Shown here in pieces: positions 35,047 to 51,931 of a DNA stretch of 64,000 nt. Where the stretch lies: positions 146,851 to 210,850 of the forward strand of contig JAUMWT010000001.1 of NCBI GenBank assembly GCA_030529505.1, given 5' to 3'. This DNA is from Allobrachymonas sp. (GTDB taxonomy: Bacteria > Pseudomonadota > Gammaproteobacteria > Burkholderiales > Burkholderiaceae_C). Each line of letters opens with the position of its first letter. Positions within the stretch are counted from its first letter, which is position 1. The notes beneath the pieces were generated by a model. The model saw only the letters and a list, made by a program, of their open reading frames with translations, was not told the origin of the DNA and did not search any database. A program made the position numbers and the translations under genes.

Positions 35047-37443
35047 ATGCCTCTATCCATCACCGAACAAATCGCCAGCGAAATTCGCGTACAAGCCCAT
35101 CAGGTGCAAGCCGCCATCGACCTGCTGGACGGTGGCGCCACCGTGCCCTTCATCGCCCGCTACCGCAAGGAGGCCACGGGCGGGCTGGACGACGCGCAAC
35201 TGCGCGAGCTGGAGGCGCGCCTGAGCTACCTGCGCGAGTTGCACGAGCGCCGCGCCGCCATCCTCAAAAGCATTGAGGAGCAAGGCAAGCTCACGCCCGA
35301 GTTGCGCGCCGCGATCGAGGCCGCGCCAACGAAGCAGGAGCTGGAAGACCTCTACCTGCCCTACAAGCCCAAGCGCCGCACCAAGGGGCAGATTGCGCGC
35401 GAATTCGGCATCGAGCCGCTGGCCGACCAGTTGTTTGCCGACCCCGCGCTGGACCCGCAAGTGGCCGCCCAGCCTTTCGTGAAAGCCGAAAAGGGCGAAG
35501 GCGGCGAAGACTTCACCACCATCGCTGCCGTGCTCGACGGCGTGCGCGACATCCTGAGCGAACGCTGGGCCGAAGACGCCGCGCTGGTGCAATCCTTGCG
35601 CGAATGGCTGTGGGCCGAGGGCCTGCTGCAAAGCAAGCTGGCCGCGGGCAAAAACGAAAACGACCCCGAAGTGGCCAAGTTCCGCGACTATTTCGATTAC
35701 GACGAGCCCATTGGCCGCGTGCCCAGCCACCGCGCGCTGGCCGTGTTTCGCGGGCGGCAGCTGGAGATTCTGGATGCCAAACTCGTCACGCCACTGGCCG
35801 CTGACGAAAAGACCAGTCTTGCTGAAGGCCGCATCGCCCAGCACCTGGGCTGGAGCCACCAAAGCCGCCCCGCCGACGACCTGTTGCGCAAATGTGTGAG
35901 CTGGACTTGGCGCGTGAAACTGAGCTTAAGCACCGAGCGCGACCTGTTCGCCCGCCTGCGCGAAGAGGCCGAAAAAGTCGCCATCAAGGTCTTTGCCGAC
36001 AACCTGCGCGACCTGCTGCTGGCCGCGCCCGCCGGGGCCAAGGCCGTGATGGGGCTGGACCCCGGCATCCGCACTGGCGTGAAAGTGGCCGTGGTGGATA
36101 GCACCGGCAAGCTGGTGGACACCGCCACCGTTTACCCGCACGAGCCACGCAAGGATTGGGACGGCAGCATCCACACCCTGGCGCGCCTCATCGCCCAGCA
36201 CGGCGTGCAGCTCATCGCCATTGGCAACGGCACCGCCAGCCGCGAAACGGACAAGCTCGCGGGCGACCTCATCAAGCACGTGCAAAAAATCGCGGCCAGC
36301 CAGCCCGGCATCACCCCGCCCACGATTGAAAAAATCGTCATCAGCGAAGCGGGTGCATCGGTTTACTCTGCCTCCGAATACGCCAGCCAAGAGCTGCCCG
36401 ACGTGGACGTGAGCCTGCGCGGCGCGGCCAGCATCGCCCGCCGTCTGCAAGACCCGCTGGCCGAACTCGTCAAGATCGACCCCAAGAGCATTGGCGTGGG
36501 CCAGTACCAGCACGACGTGAACCAGAGCGAGCTGGCCCGCGCGCTCGATGCCGTGGTGGAAGACTGCGTGAACGGCGTGGGCGTGGACTTGAACACCGCC
36601 AGCGCGCCGCTGCTGGCGCGGGTGTCGGGCCTATCCGCCACCGTGGCCAAATCCGTGGTGCGCTGGCGCGAGCAACACGGCGCCTTCCAGAACCGCCAGC
36701 AACTGCTGGAAGTCAGCGGCCTGGGCCCCAAAACCTTTGAGCAAAGCGCGGGCTTCTTGCGCATACGCGGCGGCAGCAACCCGTTGGACATGACGGGCGT
36801 GCACCCCGAAACCTATCCGGTGGTCGAGCAGATCATCGTCAGCACCGGCAAGCCCATCGACCAATTGATGGGCCGCAGCGAACTGCTCAAACCCCTCAAG
36901 CCCGAGCAGTTCGCCACCGATCAATTCGGTGCCATCACGGTGAAAGACATTCTGGCCGAACTGGAAAAACCCGGCCGCGACCCGCGCCCGGACTTCAAGG
37001 TCGCCCGCTTCAACGAAGGCGTGGAAGACATTGCCGACCTGAAGGAAGGCATGGTGCTCGAAGGCACCGTGAGCAACGTGGCCGCCTTTGGCGCCTTCGT
37101 CGATCTGGGCGTGCACCAGGACGGGCTGGTGCACGTCAGTCAGCTGTCGAACAAGTTTGTCAACGACGCGCGCGAAATCGTCAAGACCGGCCAGATCGTC
37201 AAAGTGAAGGTGCTGGAAGTGGACGTGCCGCGCAAGCGCATCAGCCTGACGATGAAGCTGGACGCGCCCACGGGCAGGCGCGAAGGCCGTGACGCCAGAG
37301 GCGAAAACCGCTTTGAACCAGCAGGCCGTAGCACAGGCCGTGGCGGCTATTCAAGCGACCGCAGCCGGGGCCAAGGTCGCCACTCAAGTGCACCCGCCAC
37401 GGCCATGGCATCGGCTTTTGAAAAGCTCAAGGGCTTAAAGTGA
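35047..37443 (+). CDS. tex: RNA-binding transcriptional accessory protein Tex
   Basis: A 798-residue S1-type RNA-binding protein that affects transcription. Tex_N starts at residue 1; a YqgF/RNase H-like fold contains [23 protein letters not shown] (about 335-358); a helix-hairpin-helix pair is at [49 protein letters not shown]; the S1 domain is at [34 protein letters not shown]; and a basic Gly/Arg-rich tail ends the protein. ATG 35047 is used; a TTG 6 bases earlier is also in frame. Confidence 0.97.
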
Positions 37444-37526
37444 TTTTAATAATTGAATAAACCTATGTTTTATGATTAACTAATATGATCTTAATTATTG
37501 AAGAGTATGAATTTGAAAATTTCTTA
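37444..37526. other. AT-rich spacer after tex
   Basis: About 80 bases of very AT-rich DNA lie between the tex stop and the mobile element. No hairpin with a T-run was recognised. It marks the left edge of the defence island and may act as an AT-rich insertion target or promoter region for the downstream genes. Confidence 0.5.
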
Positions 37527-37698
37527 GAGCCTGTTCAAAATCTCTGCACAGCGAGCAATCAAGCGGATTTGGGTGGTCTGCGGTGTTGCAAAACTTGCCA
37601 ATAGCACGCACGATTCACGCACCATTGGCCGCGTTTTGCGCCTTGCATTCCATCCCAAACCGCTTTTGCCCACTCACGCCGAGATCTTGAACAGGCTC
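37527..37698 (-). mobile_element. MITE-like element, copy 4
   Basis: A 172-bp element in the same orientation as copy 3 and very similar to it. The ends are GAGCCTGTTCAAAATCTC and GAGATCTTGAACAGGCTC, with an exact TTA duplication (37524-37526 and 37699-37701). Compared with copy 3 the loop of the core hairpin carries about 11 extra bases (GATTCACGCAC-type duplication). The element ends 17 bases before the start of the restriction gene, so it lies in its 5' region and could carry or alter its promoter. Confidence 0.9.
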
Positions 37699-37715
37699 TT
37701 ACCAATAAACTCTTT

Positions 37716-40700
37716 ATGAGCCATTATTTTTTCCAGCAACCCATTCTCAATTCGCCCTATGAATACCCCGCCCGGCACTGGGCGCTGGACGAGGCCGGGC
37801 AGCCCACCGGGCAAGTCATCGACAGCCGCCGCCGCGCGGACTTCATCACCCCCATTCCCCGGCCGCGCAAGGCGCGCGGCGCGCAGTCTGAACTGGCGCT
37901 GGGCAGCCAGCACGGCAGTGACAACCAGCTCTACCACAGAGACCTTATCAACGCCGTGCGGCAGGAGGTGGACGCCTGGCGCCAGTTGCCGCCCTCGCAG
38001 TGGCGGGTCACGCCGGAAACCGCGCGCCTGTTGCAACACTGGCGCACGCATGACTTTGCCGGCGTGCGCCCGTTTTTCTGCCAGGTCGAGGCTGCCGAAA
38101 CCGCCATCTGGCTGACTGAAGTCGCGCCACAGCTGGGCCAGCGCGGCCAGCGCTTTCTGGAGCACCTTGCCAAAGTCAACGATGACGCCAACCCCGGCCT
38201 GATGCGGCTGGCGCTCAAGCTCGCCACCGGCGCGGGCAAGACCACTGTCATGGCGATGCTGATTGCCTGGCAAACGGTCAACGCCGTGCGCCACCCCGGC
38301 AGCAAAAAATTCACCCGCGGCTTTTTGCTCGTGGCGCCGGGCATCACCATCCGCGACCGCCTGCGCGTGCTCCTGCCCAACGATCCGGACAGCTATTACG
38401 CCAGCCGCGAGATCGTGCCGCGCGACATGCTGGCCGATCTGGACAGGGCCAAGATCGTCATCACCAACTACCACGCCTTCAAGCGGCGCGAGCGCATGGA
38501 GCTTTCCAAGGGCGGCCGCCGCCTGCTGCAAGGGCGCACCGGCAGCGCGCCGGACACGCTGGAAACCGAGGGCCAGATGCTGCAACGGGTGATGCCGGAG
38601 CTGATGGGCATGAAAAACATCCTTGTCCTCAACGACGAGGCCCACCATTGCTACCGCGAAAAGCCCGCCTCCGATGAGGACTACATCGACGACAAGGGCA
38701 ATCCGCTGACCGGCGATGACCTCAAGGCCGCCAAAGCGCACGCCCAAAGCGAGAACGAAGCCGCCCGCCTGTGGATTTCCGGCCTTGAAACCGTGCAGCG
38801 CCATCTCGGGGTGCAGCGCGTCATCGACCTCTCGGCCACGCCCTTCTTTCTGGCCGGCTCCGGCTATGCCGAAGGCACGCTGTTTCCGTGGACGATGAGC
38901 GATTTTTCGCTGATGGACGCCATCGAATGCGGCATCGTCAAACTGCCGCGTGTGCCGGTGTCGCAAAACATCCCCGGCAGCGAAATGCCCATCTACCGCG
39001 AGCTGTGGAAACACATCGGCAAAAAAATGCCCAAAAAAGGTCGCGGCAAGGGCGGTGCGCTGGATCCGCACGCCATCCCCGTGGAGCTGCAAACCGCGCT
39101 GGAGGCGCTGTACGGCCACTACGTGCAAACCTTCGAGGCCTGGAAAAAGGCTGGCATCAAAGTGCCGCCCTGCTTCATCGTGGTGTGCAACAACACCGCC
39201 ACCTCCAAGCTGGTGTACGACTACATCGCTGGCTTCGGGCGCACCGATGACGACGGCAACATCCACCCCATCCCTGGCCGCTTGGAGCTGTTCCGCAACC
39301 ACGACGACTACGGCAATCCGCTGGCGCGCCCCAACACGCTGCTGATCGACAGCGAACAACTGGAATCGGGCGAGGCGCTGGACGACAACTTCCGCCGCAT
39401 GGCCGGCGATGAAATCGAGCGCTTCCGCCGCGAGATCATCGAGCGCACCGGCGACCGCGCCCGCGCCGATGAACTTAGCGACCAGGACTTGCTGCGCGAA
39501 GTCATGAACACCGTCGGCAAACCCGGCCGGCTGGGCGAATCCATCCGCTGCGTGGTGTCGGTGTCCATGCTCACCGAGGGCTGGGACGCCAACACCGTCA
39601 CCCACATCCTTGGCGTGCGCGCCTTTGGCGCCCAGCTCCTGTGCGAACAGGTCATCGGCCGCGCGCTGCGCCGCCAATCTTACGAACTCAATGCCCAGGG
39701 GCTGTTTGACGTGGAATATGCCGACGTCTTCGGCATTCCCTTCGACTTCACCGCCAAGCCTGTCGTCACCGCCCCGCCCACGCCGCGCGAAACCGTCATC
39801 GTCAAGGCGATGCGACCCGAGCGCGACCATTTGGAAATCCGCTTCCCGCGCGTGCTGGGCTACCGCGTCGAACGACCGCAAGCCGGATTGCAGGCGCGCT
39901 TTGGCGATGAGCACCACATGACGCTCACCCCCGACATGGTCGGCCCCACGCAAACCCAGAATGCCGGCCTCATTGGTGAGGCCGTCAACCTGACCGTGCA
40001 GCACCTGGGCGACGTGCGCCAATCCACCCTGCTGATGGAGCTGACGCGCCACCTGATCCAGCACTGGCGCGAGCCGGGGCAAGAGCCGCCCATCCACCTG
40101 TTCGGCCAGCTCAAGCGCATTGTTCGCCAATGGCTGGATGAATGCCTGCACTGCAAGGGCGGCACCTATCCGGCGCAACTCATGTATGGCGAGCTGACCG
40201 ACAAGGCCTGCCAGAAAATCACCGCCGCCATCACCCGCGAGGCGCTGGAAAACGGCGCGCAAATCAAGGCCATCCTCGACCCCTACAACCCCACCGGCAG
40301 CACCGCGCACGTGCGCTTTGCCACCGCGCGCGAAGGTCGCTGGGAAACCCTGGGCCCGCCGCCCAAGAATCACGTCAACTGGGTCGTCACCGACAGCGAC
40401 TGGGAGGCCGAGTTCTGCCGCGTGGCCGAGCAGCACCCGCGCGTGATCGCCTACACCAAAAACCACAACCTGGGGCTGGACGTGCCCTACCAGTTTGGCC
40501 CGGACAACCGCCTGTACCGGCCCGACTTCATCGTGCTGGTGGACGATGGCCACGGCGCGGACGACCCGCTGCACCTCATCGTCGAAATCAAGGGCTACCG
40601 CCGCGAGGATGCCGACTTCAAGAAAGCTGCCATGCAAAGCTACTGGCTGCCCGCCGTCAACCACCTGGGCACCCACGGCCGCTGGGCCTTTGCCGAATTT

Positions 40701-40793
40701 GGCGACGTGTACGAAATGCAAAGCGACTTTGCCCAGAAGGTGCAGGCCGAGTTCGACCGCATGCTGCAAGCCCACTCAGGAGACGCACCATGA
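37716..40793 (+). CDS. Type III-like restriction endonuclease subunit (BPTD_3080 family)
   Basis: A 1025-residue SF2 helicase-nuclease. Walker A is LATGAGKTTVM at about 169-179; the DExH equivalent is LNDEAHHCY near 305; motif III is LSATPF near 372; motif VI is QVIGRALRRQSYE near 645. The C-terminal nuclease has PDFIVLVDDGHG ... LIVEIKGYRRE (about 937-960), a PD-(D/E)XK site. These are the features of BPTD_3080-type restriction subunits paired with a separate methyltransferase gene, found here at 43929. Its stop overlaps the next start (ATGA). It should cut unmodified foreign DNA with ATP. Confidence 0.92.
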   Translation: MSHYFFQQPILNSPYEYPARHWALDEAGQPTGQVIDSRRRADFITPIPRPRKARGAQSELALGSQHGSDNQLYHRDLINAVRQEVDAWRQLPPSQWRVTPETARLLQHWRTHDFAGVRPFFCQVEAAETAIWLTEVAPQLGQRGQRFLEHLAKVNDDANPGLMRLALKLATGAGKTTVMAMLIAWQTVNAVRHPGSKKFTRGFLLVAPGITIRDRLRVLLPNDPDSYYASREIVPRDMLADLDRAKIVITNYHAFKRRERMELSKGGRRLLQGRTGSAPDTLETEGQMLQRVMPELMGMKNILVLNDEAHHCYREKPASDEDYIDDKGNPLTGDDLKAAKAHAQSENEAARLWISGLETVQRHLGVQRVIDLSATPFFLAGSGYAEGTLFPWTMSDFSLMDAIECGIVKLPRVPVSQNIPGSEMPIYRELWKHIGKKMPKKGRGKGGALDPHAIPVELQTALEALYGHYVQTFEAWKKAGIKVPPCFIVVCNNTATSKLVYDYIAGFGRTDDDGNIHPIPGRLELFRNHDDYGNPLARPNTLLIDSEQLESGEALDDNFRRMAGDEIERFRREIIERTGDRARADELSDQDLLREVMNTVGKPGRLGESIRCVVSVSMLTEGWDANTVTHILGVRAFGAQLLCEQVIGRALRRQSYELNAQGLFDVEYADVFGIPFDFTAKPVVTAPPTPRETVIVKAMRPERDHLEIRFPRVLGYRVERPQAGLQARFGDEHHMTLTPDMVGPTQTQNAGLIGEAVNLTVQHLGDVRQSTLLMELTRHLIQHWREPGQEPPIHLFGQLKRIVRQWLDECLHCKGGTYPAQLMYGELTDKACQKITAAITREALENGAQIKAILDPYNPTGSTAHVRFATAREGRWETLGPPPKNHVNWVVTDSDWEAEFCRVAEQHPRVIAYTKNHNLGLDVPYQFGPDNRLYRPDFIVLVDDGHGADDPLHLIVEIKGYRREDADFKKAAMQSYWLPAVNHLGTHGRWAFAEFGDVYEMQSDFAQKVQAEFDRMLQAHSGDAP

Positions 40794-42196
40794 TTACCCC
40801 TGAGCAGATCGACCTGTGGCGCAGCAGTGCGCGCGAAACCCAGAACCTGGAGTTCAAGGAAGCCAAGAGCCAGTACGACACCCACAAGCTCTGCCGCTAC
40901 TGTGTGGCGCTTGCCAACGAGGGTGGCGGCCATCTGGTGCTGGGTGTGGCCGACAAGCCGCCGCGTCCCGTTGTGGGCAGCGCCGCCTTTGCCAATGCAC
41001 AGGACATTGCCGAAAAACTGTTTGAACGGCTGGGCTTTCGCGTGGAGGCTGAAGCAGTTGCGCACCCGGATGGGCGCGTTGTGGTATTCAGCGTCCCGGC
41101 GCGCCCACGGGGTACAGCCTATCACCTGGACGGCGCCTATCTGATGCGTTCGGGCGAAGAGCTGGTGCCCATGAGTGAAGACCGGCTGCGCCAAATCTTT
41201 GCCGAGGGACAGCCAGCGTGGCTGGAAAACATCGCCCTGCAAAACGCCTCGGCGCAAGACGTGGTGCAACTGCTCGACACACAGGCCTTCTTTGATCTGT
41301 TGCGCCTGAACTATCCCACGGAACAGACGGGTGTATTGAGCCGCCTGTGTGACGAGCGCCTGATCGAGCGCAGCGCGCAAGGCTTTCACATTCTGAACAT
41401 CGGAGCCGTGCTGCTGGCCAAGAACCTGCGCAGCTTTCCGGACATTGCCCGCAAAGCGCCACGCATCATTGTCTATACGGGTGAATCCAAGTTGCAGACG
41501 CAATCGGATGTCTTTGGCGAAAAGGGCTATGCCGTTGACTTCGAGGGTCTGGTGCAGCAGGTGATGGACAAGCTGCCGCAAAACGAGGTCATCGAAGGCG
41601 CCATCCGCAAGGCGGTCAAGCTGCTGCCCAAGACACCCATTCGCGAATTGCTCGCCAATGCGCTGATTCACCAGGACTTTGAAATCGGAGGGGCATCGCC
41701 CATCGTGGAAATCTTTGCCAACCGGGTGGAAATCTCCAACCCGGGCGAACCCATCGTGCCCGTGGAACGCTTCATCGACGGCTACCAGTCGCGCAATGAA
41801 CGGCTGGCCGACCTGATGCGCCGCTTTGGCATCTGCGAGGAAAAAAGCAGTGGCATCGACCGGGTGGTTGAAACCGCAGAAATCATGCAGCTACCCGCCC
41901 CCGAGTTCCTCACCAGCCACCGGCGCACCATCGTGGTCATCCACGGCCCGCGTGCGTTTGGGGACATGAATGGCGGCGATCGCGTCCGCGCCTGCTACCA
42001 GCACTGCGTATTGCAGTACGTGCTGCGCAAGCAGATGACCAACCAATCCTTGCGCGATCGCTTTGGCCTGCCAGCCAGTGCGGGCAATACTGTCTCACAG
42101 ATCATCACTGCCACTTTGGAGCAGGGACTGATCAAAAGCGATCCGGTCGCGCCAAGCTCCAAACGCTACGCCCGCTACATCCCTGCATGGGCTTGA
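40790..42196 (+). CDS. AlbA_2/Schlafen-type ATP-binding protein (COG2865-like)
   Basis: A 468-residue protein with an AlbA_2 (Schlafen AlbA) domain at the N-terminus: NLEFKEAKSQYDTHKLCRYCVALANEGGGHLVLGVADK. The middle has a HATPase-like block (PIRELLANALIHQDFEIGGASPIVEIFANRVEISNPGEP) and SSGIDRVVETAE, and the C-terminus a winged-helix part. COG2865 proteins are putative regulators with a degenerate HATPase fold and are common in defence islands. Its start overlaps the restriction gene by ATGA, so both are likely co-translated. A 3'-end remnant of the restriction gene downstream suggests this gene was inserted between that gene and its former neighbour. Confidence 0.88.
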   Translation: MITPEQIDLWRSSARETQNLEFKEAKSQYDTHKLCRYCVALANEGGGHLVLGVADKPPRPVVGSAAFANAQDIAEKLFERLGFRVEAEAVAHPDGRVVVFSVPARPRGTAYHLDGAYLMRSGEELVPMSEDRLRQIFAEGQPAWLENIALQNASAQDVVQLLDTQAFFDLLRLNYPTEQTGVLSRLCDERLIERSAQGFHILNIGAVLLAKNLRSFPDIARKAPRIIVYTGESKLQTQSDVFGEKGYAVDFEGLVQQVMDKLPQNEVIEGAIRKAVKLLPKTPIRELLANALIHQDFEIGGASPIVEIFANRVEISNPGEPIVPVERFIDGYQSRNERLADLMRRFGICEEKSSGIDRVVETAEIMQLPAPEFLTSHRRTIVVIHGPRAFGDMNGGDRVRACYQHCVLQYVLRKQMTNQSLRDRFGLPASAGNTVSQIITATLEQGLIKSDPVAPSSKRYARYIPAWA

Positions 42197-42201
42197 GCGT
42201 C

Positions 42202-42448
42202 ATTTCATTGCAAATGAGGCTTGAACGCCGAGAAATTTTTAACGTGTTGATTTCAAATGGATTTCTTATTTCATCGCAAATCTTTCCGCTGCCCGCATGC
42301 CAAGCCGCACCAGCGCGGGGGCAGCACTCAGATGCCCCCTGTAGCTGCCTTTGACCTGTCCTTGCACGCATTTCATCGCAAATGGCACGCTGCCCAGCAA
42401 AAGGCGACAACATGTTGATTCAAAACGTTTTTTCATTTCATCGCAAAT
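42202..42448. repeat. Fourfold 14-mer ATTTCATCGCAAAT between AlbA_2 and Fic genes
   Basis: The 14-mer starts at 42202 (one mismatch), 42268, 42370 and 42435, so it forms two pairs with 66- and 65-bp spacing; around sites 2 and 4 the pairs also share GTTGATT-type sequence upstream, which suggests a duplicated unit. The gap is AT-richer than the flanking genes. The sites are upstream of the Fic gene and could be operators for one of the neighbouring HTH-bearing proteins, or the remains of an inserted unit. Confidence 0.75.
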
Positions 42449-42551
42449 CGTGCCAGCGGATCGTCACGGCAGATGGCCTGTCGCATGCACCGCCCGTCGG
42501 TTCAGGCGCCAGCGCACGCAATGCGCAAGCCTCAAGCCCAGCTGGCCGGGC

Positions 42552-42609
42552 CTTTGCCCGGAAGGTACAGGCAGAGTTCGACCGCATGCAGTCCGGGATA
42601 CAGCCATGA
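42552..42609 (+). pseudogene. Remnant of a restriction-gene 3' end
   Basis: The sequence at 42552-42590 matches 40727-40765, the last part of the restriction gene (reading FAQKVQAEFDRM there and FARKVQAEFDRM here), with about 35 of 38 bases identical, and it runs in frame to a TGA at 42607-42609. It is a short, truncated duplicate of that gene's end, placed directly before the Fic gene. Confidence 0.8.
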
Positions 42610-42697
42610 ATCCGGCGTTTTCTATACATATCCGCCATGACATGCATGGAAGAATGCGGTGTTCCATGCAGGTTTTTGCCGAAAAAGGTGCGTTGCC

Positions 42698-43831
42698 ATG
42701 AAATTTGAAAGCTTCAAACCCGGCCGCTGGCAGCAGCGCCTGCAATACAAAAGCTTCGAGCCCACGCCCGTCAACCACGACTGGCAATGGGAGGACGCGC
42801 AGATCAACCTGTTGCTGGAGTCCGCCAACCGGGCGCTGGGCGAGCTCAACGCCTTCTCGCTGATCGTGCCGGATATCGACCTGTTCATCGAAATGCACGT
42901 GGTCAAGGAGGCGCAGACTTCCAGCCGCATCGAAGGCACGCGCACCGGCATCGAAGAGGCCGTGCTGCCGGAAGAGCAGATCGCCCCGGAAAAGCGCGAC
43001 GACTGGCGCGAGGTGCGCAACTACATCGATGCGGTCAACACCGCCATCGCCGCGCTGGAAAACCTGCCGCTGTCCAACCGCCTGCTGCGCCAGGCGCATG
43101 CCACCCTGATGCAAGGCGTGCGCGGCGAGCACAAGCAACCGGGCGAATTTCGCGCCAGTCAAAACTGGATTGGCGGCTCCAGCCTGATGGATGCGGCCTT
43201 CATCCCCCCGCATCATGAGGATGTGCCCGAGCTGATGGGCGATCTGGAAAAGTTCTGGCACAACGACACCATCACAGTGCCGCACTTGATCCGCGTTGCC
43301 ATCAGTCACTACCAGTTTGAAACCATCCACCCCTTCCTGGACGGCAATGGCCGCATTGGCCGCCTGCTGATACCGCTGTATCTGGTCAGCCATGGCCTGC
43401 TGGCCAAGCCTTCGTTGTACCTGTCGGACTTTTTCGAGCGCCACCGCGGCAGCTACTACGACGCCTTGACGCGCGTGCGCGCCTCCGGCGACATGGGCCA
43501 CTGGGTGCGCTTCTTCCTGCAAGGCGTGCTGGAAACCGCCACCAAGGGCCGCGACACCTTCAGCAAAGTGCTGGCGCTGCGCACCGATGTGGAGCAACGC
43601 ATTCTGACACTGGGCAAGCGGGTGCCCAACGCGCGGGCCACGCTCAACCTCCTGTACCGCCGCCCGATGGTGGCATCTTCCGACCTGGAGCGCGAACTGC
43701 AAGTCTCGGCGCCCACGGCGCAGGCGCTGATCAAGGACTTGATCCGACTGGGCATTCTGGTGGAGATCACCGGCCAGAACCGCTGGCGTCTTTACGCTTT
43801 TGATGCTTACCTGGACCTCTTCCTGGGCTAA
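42698..43831 (+). CDS. Fic family protein (AMPylase type, N-terminal inhibitory helix)
   Basis: A 377-residue Fic protein. The catalytic loop HPFLDGNGRIGR is at about residues 211-222 and matches HxFx(D/E)GNGRxxR, so it should be active. The inhibitory motif TSSRIEGT near residue 74-81 fits the (S/T)xxxE(G/N) pattern of class II Fic proteins, where the helix lies in the N-terminus of the same chain. A winged-helix part at the C-terminus (ARATLNLLYRRPMVASSDLERELQVSAPTAQALIKDLIRLGILVEI) suggests DNA binding. ATG 42698 is preferred. It sits between the restriction and methyltransferase genes of a type III-like system. Confidence 0.92.
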   Translation: MKFESFKPGRWQQRLQYKSFEPTPVNHDWQWEDAQINLLLESANRALGELNAFSLIVPDIDLFIEMHVVKEAQTSSRIEGTRTGIEEAVLPEEQIAPEKRDDWREVRNYIDAVNTAIAALENLPLSNRLLRQAHATLMQGVRGEHKQPGEFRASQNWIGGSSLMDAAFIPPHHEDVPELMGDLEKFWHNDTITVPHLIRVAISHYQFETIHPFLDGNGRIGRLLIPLYLVSHGLLAKPSLYLSDFFERHRGSYYDALTRVRASGDMGHWVRFFLQGVLETATKGRDTFSKVLALRTDVEQRILTLGKRVPNARATLNLLYRRPMVASSDLERELQVSAPTAQALIKDLIRLGILVEITGQNRWRLYAFDAYLDLFLG

Positions 43832-43842
43832 GGATGCGCCGC

Positions 43843-43877
43843 TTGCCTTAACTTGTCCGCCTGCTAAGTTAAGGCAA
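43843..43877. promoter_or_regulatory. 12-bp inverted repeat upstream of the methyltransferase gene
   Basis: A perfect inverted repeat TTGCCTTAACTT (43843-43854) / AAGTTAAGGCAA (43866-43877), with a third, partial half-site CCCTTAACTTA at 43887-43897. No T-run follows, so it is not a typical terminator. It lies 52-86 bases upstream of the methyltransferase start, between it and the Fic gene. A binding site for the Fic protein's winged-helix domain or for another regulator is possible. Confidence 0.6.
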
Positions 43878-43928
43878 ACGCGTTTCCCTTAACTTAGTTG
43901 CCTTCTTGATTAAAGATCACCACACCTC

Positions 43929-46900
43929 ATGGCCCGTCAACCCAAATCCACCAGCAAAGCCCCTCACAAAACCGGTTTGGGCGTGGAAGACCTCGTCCAC
44001 ACCGGGGCCACGCGCAAGAACATCCCCACCGTCGAGCACCAGTCCGTCATGGACGCGGCGCAGCGCGCGCCCAGGCAGGCCCGCTACCCGCGCGCCAATG
44101 CGCAGTGGCTGGACGCGCTGTGCGCCCTGCACGAAGCGGGCGAGTGGGCTGAAGAAGGCCGGCCCAGCCTCAACCGCGAGCTGGACCCGCAGCTCATCTG
44201 GCGCGGCAAGGACCAGCAAGATTGGAGCGATCTGGTGGTCAACGCCCCGCCGCTGTACATCCAGGAAAAGGTCAAGCCCAAGGCCCTGATCGACGACCTG
44301 CGCCGCCTGAGCCAGACGGCCGACAACAGCGCCGCCAGCGCTGACATGCAACAGGCCGAGCTGTTTGGCGACTTCAACGGCCTGCCCGAAGGCGCCGAGC
44401 GCACCGACTTTTACCAGCACGAAGGCCACTGGCAAAACCGCCTGATTCTGGGCGACAGCCTGCAAGTGATGGCATCGCTGGCCGAGCGCGAGGGCCTGCG
44501 CGGCAAGGTGCAATGCATTTATTTCGACCCGCCCTACGGCATCAAATTCAACAGCAACTTCCAGTGGAGCACCACCAGCCGCGACGTGAAAGACGGCAAC
44601 GCCAGCCATATCACCCGCGAGCCTGAGCAGGTCAAGGCCTTCCGCGACACCTGGCGCGACGGCATCCACTCCTATTTGAGCTACCTGCGCGACCGCCTGA
44701 TGGTGGCGCGCGATTTGTTGAGCGAAACCGGCTCCATCTTTGTGCAGATTGGCGATGAAAACGTGCATCGCGTGCGGGCGGTTTTGGATGAGGTTTTTGG
44801 GGAGGAAAATTATCAAAACACTATTTACTTCACGACAACTGGAGGATTTTCAACAAAAGGGCTATCGAGAGTCGGTGATTATGTGCTTTGGTACAGCAAA
44901 TCCAACGCCACTAAAAAGCATCGTCAATTATTCACTGCCAAGAAAGGCGCAGACGAGGAGGGTAGCGCATACAAGAATATCGAAGTGGAAATAGGAATAC
45001 GGCGGCGTTTGACCAGTGAAGAAGCGAACCTATCTGCTGAGCATTCGCCATTTGGTCGTATTTTCCGAATCAGTGATCTTTGTGGGCAAGGTGCATCTAA
45101 AGAGCCAACGCCGTTCATGTTTCAAGGGCGTGAATACAACCCCACAAAGAGTAGTCATTGGAAGCCCAACTACCCTGATGGTCTTCGGCGGACTGCTCGG
45201 TCTGACCGCATCTACGCGACGACCAACACGCTCAATTACGTTCGATTTTTTGATGACTATCCGGTATCACCGCTTAAAGATGTTTGGAGTGATACCGGTC
45301 ACTCTGGTTTTGCCTACGACAAACTCTATGTGGTGCAAACAGCGACCGCCGTCATCGAACGCTGCCTGCTAATGGCCTCCGACCCCGGCGATCTGGTGCT
45401 TGACCCCACCTGCGGCAGCGGCACCACCGCCTATGTGGCCGAGCAATGGGGGCGGCGCTGGATCACCATCGACACCAGCCGCGTGGCGCTGGCCTTGGCG
45501 CGGGCGCGCATCATGGGCGCGCGCTACCCCTATTACCTGTTGGCCGATAGCCGCGAGGGGCAATTGAAAGAAGCCGAAATCAGCCAGAGCGCCCCGTCCA
45601 GCCAGCCGGTGCACGGCAACATCGCCCACGGTTTCGTCTGCCAGCGCGTGCCGCATATCACGCTCAAAGCCATCGCCAACAATGCCGAGATTGACGTCAT
45701 CTGGGACCAATACGAGGCCGCGCTGGCCCCGCTGCGCGCGCAATTGACGGCCGCCTTGCCCAAAGGCTGGCTGGCCGCGCATCGCAAGGCGCAGAAATAC
45801 ACTGCCGAAGTGCCCGCCGACATCCAGGAATGGGAAGTGCCGCGCGACTATCCCGAAAACTGGCCGGCATCGGCGCGCGGCCTGCATGAAGCGTTCTGGC
45901 AACAGCGCATCGCAAGGCAAAAAGACATCGACGCCAGCATTGCCGCCAAGGCCGATTTTGAAACCCTGTACGACAAACCCTATGAAGACAAAAAGCGCGT
46001 GCGCGTGGCCGGGCCCTTTACCGTGGAATCGCTCAATCCGCACCGCGAACTGGGCGTGGATGAAGAAGACCGCCTGATCGACCCCGTGGAAACAAGCCGC
46101 GCTGAATACGGCCAGGACTTTGCCAGTTTGATTCTGGAAAACCTGCGCGCCGCCGGCGTGCAGCAGGCGCACAAGTCGGGCAAGATCGCATTCACCGCGC
46201 TCACCCCCTGGCCGGGGCAGATGGTCTGCGCCGAAGGGCGTTATGACGACGAAACCGGCACCAGCAAGCGGGCCGGCATCTTCATCGGCCCGGAGTTTGG
46301 CACCGTCACCCGCGTGGATCTGGCCGACGCCGCGCGCGAGGCGGGCGAGGCCGGTTTCGACGTGCTGATCGCCTGTGCCTTCAACTACGACGCGCAGGCC
46401 AGCGAGTTCGACAAACTCGGCCGCGTGCGCGTGCTCAAGGCCCGCATGAACGCCGACCTGCACATGGCCGAAGACTTGAAAAACACCGGCAAGGGCAATC
46501 TGTTCGTGATCTTCGGCGAGCCGGATGTGGATGTGCTCGACACGCAAGGCCGCAGCATCCGCCGCTACGACGGCCAGCAGGACATCATCGACCTGCCCGA
46601 AGGCGAGGAGCTGGTGGTGAAAATCCGCGGCGTGGACGTGTTCGACCCCGCCAGCGGCGAAGTGCGCAGCGACAGCGCCGACGGCATCGCCTGCTGGTTT
46701 CTGGACACCAACTACAACGAAGAATCCTTCTTCGTGCGCCACGCCTACTTCCTCGGCTCGGGCGACCCCTACAAGGCCCTGAAAACCACCCTCAAGGCCG
46801 ACATCAACCCCGAAGCCTGGGCCAGCCTCAACTCCGACACCTCCCGCCCCTTCCCCCGGCCCGAGACCGGCCGCTTTGCCGTCAAGGTCATCAACCACCT

Positions 46901-46937
46901 GGGCGATGAGGTGATGAAGGTGTTCAGGGTGGGGTGA
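43929..46937 (+). CDS. Site-specific DNA methyltransferase (beta class, type III-like Mod)
   Basis: A 1002-residue methyltransferase. Motif IV DPPYGIKFNSN is at about residues 200-210 and the SAM-binding motif DPTCGSGTTAYVAEQWGRRWITIDTSR at about 492-518; the order IV then I defines the beta class (N6-adenine or N4-cytosine). The segment at about residues 291-478 (44,800-45,360), between the two motifs, is markedly AT-richer than the rest and should be the target-recognition domain. A 400-residue C-terminal extension without motifs I know follows. It is expected to protect the host from the restriction subunit at 37716. Its stop overlaps a GTG, and a better ATG for the next gene lies at 46979. 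Confidence 0.92.
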   Translation: MARQPKSTSKAPHKTGLGVEDLVHTGATRKNIPTVEHQSVMDAAQRAPRQARYPRANAQWLDALCALHEAGEWAEEGRPSLNRELDPQLIWRGKDQQDWSDLVVNAPPLYIQEKVKPKALIDDLRRLSQTADNSAASADMQQAELFGDFNGLPEGAERTDFYQHEGHWQNRLILGDSLQVMASLAEREGLRGKVQCIYFDPPYGIKFNSNFQWSTTSRDVKDGNASHITREPEQVKAFRDTWRDGIHSYLSYLRDRLMVARDLLSETGSIFVQIGDENVHRVRAVLDEVFGEENYQNTIYFTTTGGFSTKGLSRVGDYVLWYSKSNATKKHRQLFTAKKGADEEGSAYKNIEVEIGIRRRLTSEEANLSAEHSPFGRIFRISDLCGQGASKEPTPFMFQGREYNPTKSSHWKPNYPDGLRRTARSDRIYATTNTLNYVRFFDDYPVSPLKDVWSDTGHSGFAYDKLYVVQTATAVIERCLLMASDPGDLVLDPTCGSGTTAYVAEQWGRRWITIDTSRVALALARARIMGARYPYYLLADSREGQLKEAEISQSAPSSQPVHGNIAHGFVCQRVPHITLKAIANNAEIDVIWDQYEAALAPLRAQLTAALPKGWLAAHRKAQKYTAEVPADIQEWEVPRDYPENWPASARGLHEAFWQQRIARQKDIDASIAAKADFETLYDKPYEDKKRVRVAGPFTVESLNPHRELGVDEEDRLIDPVETSRAEYGQDFASLILENLRAAGVQQAHKSGKIAFTALTPWPGQMVCAEGRYDDETGTSKRAGIFIGPEFGTVTRVDLADAAREAGEAGFDVLIACAFNYDAQASEFDKLGRVRVLKARMNADLHMAEDLKNTGKGNLFVIFGEPDVDVLDTQGRSIRRYDGQQDIIDLPEGEELVVKIRGVDVFDPASGEVRSDSADGIACWFLDTNYNEESFFVRHAYFLGSGDPYKALKTTLKADINPEAWASLNSDTSRPFPRPETGRFAVKVINHLGDEVMKVFRVG

Positions 46938-46978
46938 AGATAATTTTCTTTCTATTTTCATTAGTTGTGAGGGGTGAG

Positions 46979-48867
46979 ATGCCGAGGATTAACAAGTTTT
47001 TCATAGAGAATTTCAAAGGGATCGAAAAAATTGAAATCGACCTCGAAAAAAAGTCAAATAGCCCGGTTTTGACGCTGATTGGTTTGAATGAAAGTGGAAA
47101 AACGACGATCCTCGAAGCGCTCTCGCATTTCATCACGGGTGATCGATCGGTTGCCAGCCTGTTCGATGGGCCCTATGCCAAAGCCACCGGATTGAGCTTG
47201 ATCCCCATGCATCGCAAGGCGGCGTATACTGGAGAAATCAAGATTGGTGCGGAGTTGTTATTAGACGAGCAGGATATCGAAGGACTTCAGAATTTAGCAA
47301 AGGATTTTGGTTTAGTCCTGGATCCCACCCCTCTCGGAGCCCCAATAAAGGCCACAAAAATTTTCCCTTTCGAAGATAGTGCGCTAAAGGAGCCAAAAAG
47401 TATTTGGACTTTGCCACTAATGGTGAGGAAGTTGCGCGGGAAAAATTTTGATGGATATAAACGCTCAAAAGATCGGGATGGTGACGATCTTTGGTTGAGG
47501 TGCGTTAATTTCATACAAAATCGCCTTCAGCAGGTTTCCTATTTCCCAACTTTTCTGGTGGATATGCCGGCAAGAATTTACTTGCAGGAACATCAGGGGG
47601 AGAGTGCGCAAAATCGCCATTACCGATTCGTTCTTCAAGACATTCTTGATAGTCTGGATGAGGGGCTGTCGCTCGAGAAGCATGTGGCAAAGCGTATTAA
47701 GGACTATAAGGAAAGCCAAGGTGGCGCGACATGGCTTTCGATGTTTTTTGGGAGTCCAAGCAAGACGCCAATTGATTCCGTATTTCAGAAAATTTCCAGT
47801 GCAATTACCAAAGAGGTAATTGGGAGCTGGCAGCGGGTTTTTCAGCGCGCTATTTCAGCGCGATCGATCTCCATCGATGGAACGTGGATGCGGAGAAGGA
47901 TGATCTTCCATACGCCACTTTTCACGTATCTGATGGTGAATCGAAATATGCCATAAATGAACGATCGCTTGGTTTTCGCTGGTTCTTTTCATTCTTGCTT
48001 TTTACCGGATTCAAGAATGGCAGGGGGCGCAAAACGATTTTTATTTTTGATGAGCCTGCGGCCAATCTTCATGCAAAAGCGCAGGCCGAGCTTTTGACAA
48101 GCTTCTCGAAGATTGCGTCGAACGGGAACAAAATAATTTATTCCACTCACAGCCATCACATGATAAATCCGCGCTGGCTTGGGGCAGCGTACATTATTGA
48201 GAATGCAGCACTCGACTATGACAGCTCGGACAGTTTCGGCCTGGATACCAAACCAACAAACATAAAGGCTACTCCGTACCGTCAATTTGTATCAAAGTTC
48301 CCAGCCCGGTCGAGTTATTTCCAGCCTGTAATTGAGAAGCTGGAGTACATTCCGCCAGAAATTGTTGGTTCTGCACCCTATCTGGTTGTTGAGGGGATTT
48401 CCGACTACTACGCACTCACACTGGCAAAGCGCATATCCGGCAAGGCTTATTCTTTCAATGTGCTTCCAGGCTCGGGCTCCGGGGCATCTGGACCAGTGAT
48501 AAGCCAATTGATGGCGCAAGGGCAGAAATTTATCTTGCTTTTGGATGATGATGCCGAAGGTAGGAAAGCTGCATCCAAATACGCGGATGAATGGTTTATT
48601 GGTACGGACAAGCTATCAACTTTGAAAGATGTGGACGCATCTTTTGATGGAATGGCGATCGAAAAATTACTCGGACCCGAGACCATAGAACTGATCCAAT
48701 CCCATTCAGAAAACTCAGGAAAATTAAGTAAAAAGCAGATTGGCTGGTATCTGGCCGAGTCCTGCGCGGAAACCGGAGACATTGCGGGCAAGCTCCCTGA
48801 ATCCGCTGTCGAGAACCTGCTCAAAGTCCTCGATCATTTCGAGTCTTTGTTTACGGAGACAGTCTGA
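46979..48867 (+). pseudogene. OLD-family ATPase/TOPRIM nuclease (GajA-like), interrupted by a frameshift
   Basis: Two overlapping frames together encode one OLD-family protein. The first (46979-47956) has the N-terminus MPRINKFFIENFKGIEKIEI and Walker A LIGLNESGKTT (about 34-43). The second (47884-48867) has the signature-like ERSLGFRWFFSFLL, Walker B KTIFIFDEPAANLH, the STHSHH motif, and a TOPRIM domain with VVEGISDYYAL and LLLDDDAEGRK. A -1 shift near 47878 would join them, so one base appears to be missing. The ATG at 46979 follows a GAGGGG ribosome-binding site. The end overlaps the next gene (TGATG). OLD proteins followed by a UvrD-like helicase are the GajA-GajB order of Gabija. Base use is more AT-rich than in the flanking genes. 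Confidence 0.82.
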
Positions 48868-51020
48868 TGCACTTCCGCATTGCCGACACCTTCACCGCCA
48901 GCCTGGCGCGTTTGACCCGCGACGAGCAAAAGCTGGTCAAGACCACGGCCTTTGACTTGCAAATGGACCCCAGCGGCAAGGGACACAGCTTCCACAAGCT
49001 CGATCGCGCCAAAGACCCCCATTTCTGGTCGGTGCGGGTCAGCCGCGACATTCGCCTGATCGTGCACCGCATGGTCAGCAGCCTGCTGCTGTGCTACGTC
49101 GATCACCACGACAAGGCCTACCAGTGGGCCGAGCGGCGCAAGCTGCAAACGCACCCCGCCACGGGCGCGGCGCAACTGGTGGAAATCCGCGAAAGCGTGC
49201 AGGAAGTGGCGCCGACACGCCGTGCCGAAGCCAGCGTCAATGCCAGCATGGCGGCTAGCGAGGCCGCCGCGCCGCCGGTATCCGCTGCCACGGTCATGCC
49301 CGCTGCCGCTGGCTCGGCGCTGTTTGCCGCTTACAGCGACGATGCGTTGCTGGCCTATGGCGTGCCGCTGGAATGGCTGGACGATGTGCGCGCCGCCGAC
49401 GAGGACGGGTTGCTGGAGCTGGTCACGCATCTGCCAGCCGAGGCTGGCGAGGCGCTGCTGGAGTTGGCCACGGGCGGCACGCCCACGCTGCCCGCGCCTG
49501 CCGACGCCGATGCCGATCCCTTCCTGCATCCGGATGCGCAGCGGCGCTTTCGCACGCTGGACAATGCCGAGGAGCTGGCACAGGCGCTGGAATACCCGTG
49601 GGACAAGTGGACGGTGTTCCTGCATCCGGCGCAGCGGCAGATGGTGGCGCGCGATTACAACGGCCCGGCGCGGGTGTCCGGCTCGGCCGGCACGGGCAAG
49701 ACGGTGGTGGCGCTGCACCGGGCGGCGCATCTGGCGCGGCAGGATGAAGACGCGCGCGTGTGGCTCACCACCTTTTCCGACCCGCTGGCGAAAGTGCTGC
49801 AAGGCGCGCTGTTTCGCCTGCTTTACAACACGCCGCGCGTGGCCGAGCACATCGACGTGGCGTCGATGGACGCCATGGCGTTGCGCCTGTACCGGGGGCA
49901 GTTCGGCAAGCCGCCCAAGCTGGCCGACGAAGCGCAGATCGCCGCCTGGCTGCAAGAAGCGGCGGCCACGGTGGCTGGCCTGAAGCAAGGTCAGGCGTTT
50001 TTGCTGGCCGAGTGGCAGGAGGTGGTTGATGCCTGGCAGATCGACAACTGGGAGGCCTACCGCGATGCCAAGCGGCTGGGCCGCAGAACCCGCTTGCCCG
50101 AAGCGCAACGGGCCTTGTGCTGGCAGGTGTTTGAACAGGTGCAGGCACGGCTGGAACAGGCCGGGCAACTGACTTGGGCGGGCCTGCTGCGGCAACTGGC
50201 CGAAGCCATGCCTGAGCGAGCGCATCCGGTGTTCAGCCATATCGTGGTGGACGAGGCACAGGACATCGGCGTGCAGCAACTGCGCTTTCTCGCCGCGCTG
50301 GCCGGGGGCAGGCCCAATGCCCTGTTCTTTGCCGGCGATCTCGGCCAGCGCATCTTCCAGCAACCGTTTTCATGGAAGGCGCTGGGCGTGGACGTGCGCG
50401 GGCGCTCGCGCACGCTCAGCATCAACTACCGCACCTCGCACCAGATCCGCGCCCAGGCCGACCGCCTGCTGGGGCCGGAAGTGTCCGATCTGGACGGCAA
50501 TGTGGAAACCCGCAAGGGCACGATCTCGGTGTTCAACGGCCCCGCGCCGGTCATCCGCAGCTACCCCAGCGCCGAGGCCGAAAGTCGCGCCGTGGGGCAG
50601 TGGTTGCGGCAGTGCGCCGAGCAAGGCATGCAAGCGCATGAAATGGCGGTGTTCGTGCGCTCGGATGCTGAAATGCCGCGTGCGCAAGCGGCCGTGGCCG
50701 CCGCCGGCCTTGCAGCCAAGGTGCTGGACCAGCACATGGCGACCGAGGAAGGCTACGTCAGTCTGGCCACCATGCACCTGGCCAAGGGCATGGAATTTCG
50801 CGCCGTGGCAGTGATGGCCTGTGATGATGAAGTCATCCCTTCCCAGACGCGCATCAACACTGCCGCCGACGAAGTGGCGCTGGGCGAGATCTACGACACC
50901 GAGCGCCACCTGCTCTACGTGGCCTGCACCCGGGCGCGCGACTTTTTGCATGTCTCGGCAGTGGCGCCGGAGTCGGAGTTCCTGCAGGATTTAGCAATAA
51001 ATCGCGATGAGTTGAATTGA
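48867..51020 (+). CDS. RelE-like N-terminus fused to a UvrD-type SF1 helicase (GajB-like position)
   Basis: A 717-residue protein. Residues 1-90 (MHFRIADTFTASLARLTRDEQKLVKTTAFDLQMDPSGKGHSFHKLDRAKDPHFWSVRVSRDIRLIVHR) look like a RelE/ParE-type fold. An Ala-rich linker (about 95-225) follows, and then an SF1 helicase: Walker A GSAGTGKTVVAL at about 270, Walker B VVDEAQD at about 460, QRIFQQPFSW, and the C-terminal motifs VSLATMHLAKGMEFRAV and ERHLLYVACTRA. It starts at the overlapping TGATG junction with the OLD gene. The pairing suggests nucleic-acid processing as in class 2 OLD/Gabija systems; whether the RelE-like part cuts mRNA is unknown. Confidence 0.88.
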   Translation: MHFRIADTFTASLARLTRDEQKLVKTTAFDLQMDPSGKGHSFHKLDRAKDPHFWSVRVSRDIRLIVHRMVSSLLLCYVDHHDKAYQWAERRKLQTHPATGAAQLVEIRESVQEVAPTRRAEASVNASMAASEAAAPPVSAATVMPAAAGSALFAAYSDDALLAYGVPLEWLDDVRAADEDGLLELVTHLPAEAGEALLELATGGTPTLPAPADADADPFLHPDAQRRFRTLDNAEELAQALEYPWDKWTVFLHPAQRQMVARDYNGPARVSGSAGTGKTVVALHRAAHLARQDEDARVWLTTFSDPLAKVLQGALFRLLYNTPRVAEHIDVASMDAMALRLYRGQFGKPPKLADEAQIAAWLQEAAATVAGLKQGQAFLLAEWQEVVDAWQIDNWEAYRDAKRLGRRTRLPEAQRALCWQVFEQVQARLEQAGQLTWAGLLRQLAEAMPERAHPVFSHIVVDEAQDIGVQQLRFLAALAGGRPNALFFAGDLGQRIFQQPFSWKALGVDVRGRSRTLSINYRTSHQIRAQADRLLGPEVSDLDGNVETRKGTISVFNGPAPVIRSYPSAEAESRAVGQWLRQCAEQGMQAHEMAVFVRSDAEMPRAQAAVAAAGLAAKVLDQHMATEEGYVSLATMHLAKGMEFRAVAVMACDDEVIPSQTRINTAADEVALGEIYDTERHLLYVACTRARDFLHVSAVAPESEFLQDLAINRDELN

Positions 51021-51031
51021 TTTATCTCCTT

Positions 51032-51868
51032 TTACATCAAACCAAAGCGACGACACAGTTCCAGCGTAGCCGCGCTTTGGTTCATGGTGTAGAAGTGCAG
51101 GCTGGGCGCCCCGCCAGCGATCAGGCGCTGGCAGAGCTGCGCGATCACGTCCATGCCCAGCGCCTGAATGGCGGCCGCGTCGTCGCCCAGTTCTTGCAAG
51201 CGCAGGCGCAGCCAACGGGGAATTTCCGCGCCGCAGGCATCCGAAAAGCGAATCAACTGGCTGCTGTTGGTAATCGGCATGATGCCCGGCACGATGGGCG
51301 CTTGCACGCCCAGCTTTTGCGCTTCGTCCACAAAGCGGAAGTAGGCATCGGCGTTGAAAAAGTATTGGGTGATCACGCCGTTGGCGCCTGCATCCACCTT
51401 GGCTTTGAGGGCGCGCAAATCGGCCTGCGGATTAGGCGCCTGCGGGTGCATCTCTGGATAGCCCGCCACTTCGATGTGAAAGGCATCGCCCGTTTCTTCA
51501 CGAATGAAGCGCACCAGATCGCTGGCGTACACAAATTCGCCGCCCACGCCGTGGCCGCTGGGCAAGTCGCCACGCAGGGCCACCAGGCGCTTCACGCCCA
51601 TGCCTTGCAGCTGCTGCAACTGCTCGCGCACCGTGGCGTGCGTTGCGCCGATGCACGAGAAGTGGCTGGCGGCGTCTACGCCTTCTTGCAGGATTTCTTG
51701 CACGGTATCGAAGGTGCCGCTGCGCGTGGAGCCGCCCGCGCCGTACGTTACCGAACAGAACTCGGGCTTGAGGGCGTAGAGCTGCTGGCGCACTTCGCGC
51801 AGTTTGGCTGCGCCTTCGGGCGTTTTGGGCGGAAAAAATTCCAGGCTGATGGGGGTGATCGAAGCCAT
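51032..51868 (-). CDS. metF: 5,10-methylenetetrahydrofolate reductase
   Basis: MetF makes 5-methyl-THF for homocysteine methylation. The 278-residue protein starts at ATG 51868, after AAGGA. The conserved blocks are ISLEFFPPKTPEGAAKL, FCSVTYGAGGSTRSGTFDTV, LVALRGDLPSGHG, EVAGYPEMHPQAPNPQADLRALKAKVDAGANGVITQYFFNADAYFRFVDEA and VPGIMPITNSSQLIRFSDACGAEIP. It is convergent with the helicase gene (11 bases apart) and last in the ahcY-tlyA-metF run. Confidence 0.97.
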   Translation of the reverse strand: MASITPISLEFFPPKTPEGAAKLREVRQQLYALKPEFCSVTYGAGGSTRSGTFDTVQEILQEGVDAASHFSCIGATHATVREQLQQLQGMGVKRLVALRGDLPSGHGVGGEFVYASDLVRFIREETGDAFHIEVAGYPEMHPQAPNPQADLRALKAKVDAGANGVITQYFFNADAYFRFVDEAQKLGVQAPIVPGIMPITNSSQLIRFSDACGAEIPRWLRLRLQELGDDAAAIQALGMDVIAQLCQRLIAGGAPSLHFYTMNQSAATLELCRRFGLM

Positions 51869-51931
51869 GTGTGTTCCTTGTTGCGTTATCAAAAAATCAA
51901 AAGAGCCATGCCGGGGTTGCTACTTTCAAGA

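What the first reader, a model, noticed from the sequence alone, without database searches (positions are those of the whole stretch)
37716..51020. Six-gene defence island combining type III-like R-M, AlbA_2, Fic and a Gabija-like pair
Six same-strand, often overlapping genes: restriction subunit, AlbA_2 ATPase, Fic enzyme, methyltransferase, OLD ATPase/TOPRIM nuclease and RelE-helicase. The close order between functionally different systems suggests a joint unit, perhaps R-M as primary defence, Gabija-like as back-up and Fic as toxin-like effector. I do not recall this exact combination from described systems.
Basis: partly seen in the sequence, partly recalled or inferred. Interest (0 to 1): 0.8.

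Follow-up and report, generated by a model that had tools for sequence, protein, structure and literature searches.

The report
Restriction operon with swappable defence cargo
The six genes are one copy of a widespread three-gene restriction unit (a cutter, a methyltransferase and a helicase with a toxin-like domain) that carries swappable extra defence-type genes in two fixed slots; here the extras are an AlbA_2 gene, a Fic gene and a broken nuclease gene.

Summary
Three form a conserved operon: a BPTD_3080-type restriction endonuclease (RES), a ~1000-aa type III-like methyltransferase (MT) and a RelE-UvrD helicase (HEL). Of 51 loci with at least 9 kb upstream of HEL (among the 80 most similar), 48 have MT upstream on the same strand (47, one). 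RES-HEL distances correlate at r=0.90 in 36 loci. The core is in many phyla and, with both slots empty, on a conjugative Pseudomonas plasmid. Other genes sit in two slots, RES-MT and MT-HEL, empty or with varied defence-like cargo. In the window, slot A holds AlbA_2 and Fic; slot B an OLD/TOPRIM gene in two frames. The nearest relative (RES 92%, HEL 94% DNA identity) lacks AlbA_2, has other cargo between MT stop and HEL ATG, and a different MT recognition domain. Copies of core-gene ends lie between some stacked cargo. "Gabija-like pair" is rejected; HEL's family is ArmD of ARMADA type II (PMC12458937, passages). Embedded defence genes are a known idea; I found no description of this core. Function is inferred.

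The parts
37716..40793 (+). RES: BPTD_3080-family restriction endonuclease, 1025 aa (core gene 1); GAGKT 172, DEAH 307, PDF...EIK from 936
   Evidence: NF046055 1332 bits; ResIII; motifs
40790..42196 (+). AlbA_2 / HATPase_c_4 protein, 468 aa (slot A cargo)
   Evidence: Pfam PF04326, PF13749; no DNA match in nearest relative L111
42203..42448 (+). Four copies of TTTCAT(C/T)GCAAAT behind the AlbA_2 gene (possible operator; function unknown)
   Evidence: 4 matches in 64 kb, 0.02 expected
42552..42589 (+). Scar: 38-bp copy (92%) of the RES 3' end (40727-40764)
42698..43831 (+). Fic protein, 377 aa, SoFic-like, HPFLDGNG at 211 and (S/T)xxxE(G/N)-type motif at 75 (slot A cargo)
   Evidence: PDLC03963 398.6 bits (scanned from the GTG at 42659); motifs
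43929..46937 (+). MT: type III-like methyltransferase, 1002 aa (core gene 2); DPPY 200, DPTCGSG 492
   Evidence: PDLC03632 1579 bits; PDB type III Mod matches
44806..45279 (+). Probable recognition-domain segment of MT, exchanged relative to L111
   Evidence: DNA homology break; 16-44% aa identity in the six bins 301-450
46979..47956 (+). OLD-like gene, ATPase half (slot B cargo, first frame)
   Evidence: AAA_15; Walker A GLNESGKT
47884..48867 (+). OLD-like gene, ATPase C-part + TOPRIM half (slot B cargo, other frame)
   Evidence: AAA_15 C-terminus; Toprim 21.3 bits, below its cut-off of 23.1; VVEGISD, DDDAEG
48867..51020 (+). HEL: RelE-like domain (about 1-110) fused to UvrD-type helicase, 717 aa (core gene 3), ArmD family

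Best explanation
The island is one copy of a conserved mobile operon RES-[slot A]-MT-[slot B]-HEL. Shown by sequence: order and strand are conserved, HEL is co-inherited with RES and MT, and the two slots hold cargo that differs between relatives. Inferred: MT methylates a site set by its exchangeable recognition domain; RES with MT cuts unmethylated incoming DNA in an ATP-driven, type III-like way; HEL, an SF1 (UvrD-type) motor with a strongly conserved RelE-like domain, acts with or after cleavage by unwinding or degrading the cut DNA, the RelE fold serving either as an RNase/toxin part or as a binding module. The cargo (AlbA_2, Fic, OLD and many others elsewhere) provides additional, possibly back-up, defences. 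Cargo changes by recombination in the conserved core-gene ends next to the slots, which leaves short copies of those ends as scars; cassettes can thereby be stacked or replaced. In this window AlbA_2 and Fic are probably working cargo, and the OLD gene is broken (or the assembly is wrong there).
For: Core: of 51 loci with >=9 kb upstream of HEL, 47 have MT, 44 RES, 43 both; a 48th (L170) has MT 10 kb upstream on the same contig. In 399 genomes of the order, 8 (own included) have HEL and RES on one contig in operon order. Mantel r: RES-HEL 0.90, MT-HEL 0.77, RES-MT 0.68 in 36 loci; 0 of 2000 permutations as high. A conjugative Pseudomonas avellanae plasmid carries RES-MT-HEL with both slots empty. 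Slots: A <=200 bp in 23 of 56, >=600 bp in 31; B <=70 bp in 11 of 75, >=600 bp in 62. Cargo includes SIR2 + HerA, IetA and IetS, RhuM, PDC-M32A/B, AlbA_2, Fic, GmrSD_N, ABC-3C parts. Cargo-HEL similarity: r 0.15, 0.09, -0.08, 0.00 for AlbA, cluster 2, Fic, RhuM. Swap: window against L111 breaks at the MT stop and HEL ATG. Scars: all 7 same-strand DNA matches >=50 bp, and 7 of 8 protein matches, found in 96 slots are core-gene ends bordering that slot. RelE-like part 0.77 conserved against 0.63 for the helicase part.
Against: The 80 loci are those most like HEL out of 540 confirmed, so the association is measured near the window's clade. Three RES of this clade have no HEL in the 3.9-9.2 kb read behind MT (L108, L109, L087), and their genomes (G073, G292, G181) are not among the HEL hits; four more (L103, L104, L106, L107) end at or near a contig end and cannot be judged. 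HEL without intact RES and MT: L147, L141 (fragments), L187. PDC-M32A and its partner track the core (r 0.82 and 0.81; 15 and 10 pairs, one very close pair among them), so not all cargo moves freely. Scars were found in only 7 of 96 slots (window included). Co-inheritance could reflect linkage alone. No activity was tested; the RES endonuclease domain is below its Pfam cut-off.
Confidence: 0.72

Rival explanations
1. Gabija-like pair (OLD + helicase) joined to an R-M system as a back-up.
For: OLD-like ATPase/TOPRIM halves lie directly before a UvrD-type helicase; HEL has weak GajB matches, best 77.9 bits.
Against: HEL follows MT directly in 11 of 75 loci and follows unrelated cargo in many others; the OLD gene is in two frames; the three plasmid OLD homologues read have no helicase annotated beside them (PLSDB gene tables are incomplete); HEL has the RelE-like domain of ArmD.
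Confidence: 0.05
2. Ordinary defence island: unrelated systems gathered by chance between tex and metF, with RES-MT as a plain type III R-M and HEL just another neighbour.
For: A same-genus genome has tex and metF 618 bp apart with no island; cargo is variable.
Against: The order RES-MT-HEL, on one strand and with the same two slots, recurs in many phyla and on plasmids.
Confidence: 0.1
3. The core is a selfish, addictive unit: the RelE-like domain is a toxin held off while RES-MT is intact, and the cargo are passengers under no selection for joint function.
For: The RelE-like part is conserved beyond the helicase part; plasmid carriage; broken cargo in the window.
Against: HEL occurs without RES and MT in L147; cargo includes known defence families. 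An antitoxin gene was not looked for downstream of HEL.
Confidence: 0.13

Closest known systems
ARMADA type II (ArmA-ArmB-ArmC-ArmD; preprint PMC12458937, passages read)
   Same: [quoted passage not shown] HEL is of this family (E. coli plasmid homologue 33% identical, behind a DEAD helicase, a methyltransferase and a 2113-aa DEAD/DEAH helicase).
   Different: No ArmA, ArmB or ArmC here; instead a type III-like RES and MT, and two cargo slots.
Type III restriction-modification (EcoP15I type)
   Same: MT matches type III Mod structures and a PADLOC MTase_III model; RES has a ResIII motor and a PD...ExK-like motif.
   Different: MT is ~1000 aa with a long C-terminal part; RES reaches only 17.8 bits on PADLOC REase_III models; a third gene, HEL, is conserved.
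Defence genes embedded in other immune systems ('guilt-by-embedding', Payne et al. 2024 preprint, not read; seen as cited in passages of PMC12255303 and PMC12988326)
   Same: Foreign defence genes sit between the genes of an immune system; several slot-B cargo are PADLOC PDC families.
   Different: The host operon is this RES-MT-HEL core, with two defined slots and scars of core-gene ends. Whether that preprint covers it is not known to me.
Gabija (GajA-GajB)
   Same: An OLD/TOPRIM-type gene before a UvrD-type helicase.
   Different: Not a conserved pair; the helicase has a RelE-like domain and belongs to the R-M core.
SoFic
   Same: Fic gene matches PADLOC SoFic at 398.6 bits.
   Different: NCBIfam SoFic equivalog cut-off not reached (160 of 550 bits); here it sits inside an R-M operon.

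Membership tests
Type III restriction-modification | Mod-type DNA methyltransferase with a recognition domain between the DPPY and SAM-binding motifs | tested here: met
   DPPY 200, variable stretch about 301-475, DPTCGSG 492; PDLC03632 1579 bits; PDB Mod hits
Type III restriction-modification | Res subunit with SF2 motor and PD-(D/E)xK endonuclease | tested here: inconclusive
   ResIII 35.9 bits; RE_endonuc 19.6 bits, below the 23.4 cut-off; PDF...EIK motif; PADLOC REase_III at most 17.8 bits
Type III restriction-modification | Cleavage needs ATP and two oppositely oriented unmethylated sites (recalled) | not testable with these tools
   biochemical
Gabija | Intact GajA (ATPase + TOPRIM in one protein) | tested here: not met
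   Two halves in different frames
Gabija | GajA and GajB conserved as a pair | tested here: not met
   HEL is conserved with RES-MT, not with this OLD gene
ARMADA type II | ArmD: UvrD helicase with N-terminal RelE-like domain | tested here: met
   HHD.AY-type region aligns with ArmD-like homologues; RM-linked and ARMADA-linked rows part at one branch, 93/96
ARMADA type II | ArmA, ArmB (PglX-like) and YprA-like ArmC alongside | tested here: not met
   None among the ORFs scanned between 35041 and 54208
SoFic | Fic catalytic motif and SoFic family score | tested here: inconclusive
   HPFLDGNG present; PADLOC 398.6 bits; below NCBIfam cut-off
Embedded defence genes in an immune operon | Defence-type genes between core genes, variable among relatives | tested here: met

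The most novel reading that the evidence does not exclude
RES-MT-HEL is a distinct three-component restriction system in which an ArmD-like RelE-UvrD helicase is a working subunit, and the operon is a dedicated platform that captures and stacks defence cassettes by recombination in its own gene ends, leaving readable scars, while also exchanging the methyltransferase recognition domain.
Probability: 0.45. Interest if true: 0.8.

Novelty: new variant of a known kind. Interest (0 to 1): 0.63.

Why it matters
It would add a helicase with a toxin-like domain as a third conserved component of a widespread R-M system, link type III-like R-M to ARMADA through one helicase family, and give a concrete, testable route (scars of core-gene ends) by which defence genes are loaded into and swapped within a mobile operon. 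The slots point to untested cargo genes.

Tried and rejected
Rejected: a Gabija-like pair, and chance accumulation (see rivals). Little gained: PDB search with RES, 0 hits at E <= 0.01; OLD homologues in the order, none but the own genome at E <= 1e-15, so the frame break could be judged only against distant plasmid homologues at about 26-28% identity; paper search for 'BPTD_3080', 0 papers. No title or abstract start describing a RES-MT-RelE/UvrD operon turned up in the searches; beyond those listings I saw only passages of PMC12255303, PMC12988326 and PMC12458937. The Payne et al. 2024 preprint is not held and was not read, so priority for parts of this cannot be excluded. The 7 mid-gene DNA matches in slots (of 16 hits, 32-42 bp) were not counted as scars; one search covered the plus strand only. 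Rows dropped: duplicate loci L110 and L093 (kept as L112, L161); from the 36 and 130 same-strand slot ORFs of at least 115 aa (211 ORFs of all kinds), three RES end pieces and one slot-B ORF were left out of the Pfam scans (33 and 129 scanned). ORFs were called mechanically, so some are spurious and some true genes were displaced (the window's own Fic among them, so Fic is undercounted). My first Fic query was cut in a wrong frame and corrected.
Full report
What is there. The interval holds six same-strand genes as reported: RES 37716-40793, AlbA_2 40790-42196, Fic 42698-43831, MT 43929-46937, an OLD-like ATPase/TOPRIM gene 46979-48867, and HEL 48867-51020, between tex (35041-37443) and metF (51032-51892, minus strand; named from its sequence, not scanned). 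RES is a BPTD_3080-family restriction endonuclease (NF046055, 1332 bits). MT matches a PADLOC type III methyltransferase model over almost its whole length (1579 bits) and type III Mod structures. Catalytic motifs of RES, MT, Fic and HEL are present. The OLD-like gene lies in two frames (46979-47956 and 47884-48867), while the three plasmid homologues I read are annotated as single genes of 660-667 aa. It is therefore broken, or the assembly is wrong there.

A conserved core. HEL and the RES family were searched in 399 genomes of the order. HEL (E <= 1e-40) occurs in 17, RES (E <= 1e-100) in 31; in 8 genomes, the own one included, both lie on one contig in operon order. In 65 of 80, part of MT lies upstream of HEL on the same strand. 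Of the 51 with at least 9 kb upstream, 47 have MT, 44 RES and 43 both. Of the four misses, L170 has MT ending 10 kb upstream on the same contig; L141 keeps only RES and MT fragments; L147 has no MT in its genome at E <= 1e-20, and L187 has MT matches only on contigs that I could not link to it. The 80 loci come from Pseudomonadota, Nitrospirota, Verrucomicrobiota, Spirochaetota, Bacteroidota and other groups by their record titles. Counter-examples: RES of the same clade without HEL in L108, L109 and L087, whose genomes are not among the HEL hits. Fifteen loci with RES at 31-37% identity have no HEL of this clade in the 9-20 kb read; two of them have a weak UvrD match at 23-26%.

Co-inheritance. 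In 36 loci with all three genes intact, pairwise distances correlate: RES-HEL 0.90, MT-HEL 0.77, RES-MT 0.68, none reached in 2000 permutations. A conjugative plasmid of Pseudomonas avellanae carries RES, MT and HEL with both slots empty. A mobilizable plasmid of P. amygdali also has MT abutting HEL, but its RES lacks the first 185 residues and its MT is in two pieces. A Gemmobacter and a Rhizobium plasmid have the core with small hypothetical genes in the slots.

Two slots. Slot A (RES-MT) was measured in 56 loci: 23 at most 200 bp, 31 at least 600 bp. Slot B (MT-HEL) in 75: 11 at most 70 bp, 62 at least 600 bp. Pfam on 33 slot-A ORFs: HATPase_c_4 in 9, AlbA_2 in 5, Fic in 5, DUF4062 in 4, Bro-N in 4, DUF1016_N and YhcG_C in 2 each, GmrSD_N in 2. 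On 129 slot-B ORFs: AAA_21 in 12, AAA_15 in 10, RhuM in 5, SIR2_2 in 4, ABC-3C parts, GmrSD_N and others. AlbA-type ORFs are 9 in slot A and 1 in slot B. Of ten slot-B ORFs scanned singly with PADLOC, eight match at 1e-20, among them SIR2, HerA, IetA, IetS, PDC-M32A, PDC-M32B and PDC-S05; two have no match. Cargo and HEL similarity are uncorrelated for AlbA (r 0.15, 44 pairs), cluster 2 (0.09, 10), Fic (-0.08, 10) and RhuM (0.00, 6), weakly for cluster 6 (0.30, 6), but correlated for PDC-M32A (0.82, 15) and its partner (0.81, 10), in both with one very close pair.

The window against its nearest relative. L111 (Comamonadaceae bacterium OH2545_COT-014) is 91.8% identical over RES, 96.4% over Fic and the first part of MT, 92.5% over the rest of MT and 93.5% over HEL. 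No match to AlbA_2 appears. Homology stops at the MT stop codon (46937) and resumes at the HEL ATG (48867); between them L111 has a PDC-M32A gene instead of OLD. Inside MT, homology breaks at 44805-45280, where protein identity is 16-44% in the six 25-residue bins 301-450: the recognition domain has been exchanged.

Scars. In 96 slots of at least 250 bp, a plus-strand DNA search against the core genes of the same locus gave 16 hits. All 7 of at least 50 bp are MT 3' ends or HEL 5' ends inside slot B (L123, L134 twice, L137, L148, L169, L183). The other 9 are 32-44 bp: 7 mid-gene, one near the MT 3' end, and the window's 38-bp copy of the RES 3' end between AlbA_2 and Fic. A protein search with core proteins of all loci gave 8 intervals: the same 7 gene ends and one weak mid-gene match. 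In L134 a HEL 5' end runs straight into an MT 3' end, followed by a RhuM gene: what is expected if two MT-cargo-HEL units were joined and the middle lost. I infer that cassettes are exchanged and stacked by recombination in the core-gene ends. Most slots show no scar.

HEL. The RelE-like part (1-110) is more conserved than the helicase part (0.77 against 0.63 mean identity to the window in 82 homologues); its Pfam support alone is weak (HigB-like toxin, E 0.019). Four distant homologues in the order follow a protein of 2106-2383 aa; the one scanned has DEAD and MZB domains. On an E. coli plasmid the homologue (33%) follows a DEAD helicase, a methyltransferase and a 2113-aa DEAD/DEAH helicase. 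[quoted passage not shown] HEL is thus an ArmD-family protein in a different, type III-like R-M core. In a tree of 18 rows the RM-linked and ARMADA-linked rows fall on two sides of one branch (93/96; the Thermus row is long and uncertain).

Mechanism. Shown: the anatomy, co-inheritance, exchange of cargo and recognition domain, scars. Inferred: restriction of unmethylated DNA by RES-MT, processing by HEL, and auxiliary defence by cargo. In this window Fic has its catalytic motif and an inhibitory-type motif (their meaning is recalled), so it may act as an autoinhibited AMPylase; AlbA_2 may regulate or act on nucleic acid; the OLD gene is probably silent.

Place. In a same-genus genome (G001) tex and metF lie 618 bp apart with no island, so the island was gained here, or lost there, between these genes.

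Verdict. Embedding of defence genes in immune operons is known; the three-gene core and its scars I did not find described in the searches named under Tried and rejected.

Noticed in passing
window 37522-37704: A 183-bp element with inverted ends lies just upstream of RES; 48 full or partial matches in the own genome, so a MITE-like dispersed repeat that may affect the operon's promoter.
   Followed up: partly
window 42203-42448: Four copies of a 13-base motif between AlbA_2 and Fic, 0.02 expected in the window; possible operator of the AlbA_2 cassette.
   Followed up: partly
window 43840-43897: Inverted repeats between Fic and MT, perhaps a terminator or regulatory site for MT.
   Followed up: no
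window 55539-56489 and 56001-58000: A 316-aa ORF without matches in the NCBIfam and PADLOC scans (Pfam not tried) next to an A+T-rich stretch (G+C 0.43): perhaps another acquired segment.
   Followed up: no
L134 1516-4707 and L156 4549-7932: MT carries an insertion of about 123 and 114 codons near residue 896, in frame by its length.
   Followed up: no
L185 205-9969 and L170 2002-9881: Large slot-B cassettes of related make-up: five of seven L185 ORFs have a match in L170, 29-87% identity.
   Followed up: partly
L208 5787-17757: On a Qipengyuania plasmid a HEL homologue (48%) sits between a gene pair with a RecB-like nuclease and a DUF4011 gene, with no RES or MT annotated in the 22 kb read: another genomic setting of this helicase family.
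   Followed up: no
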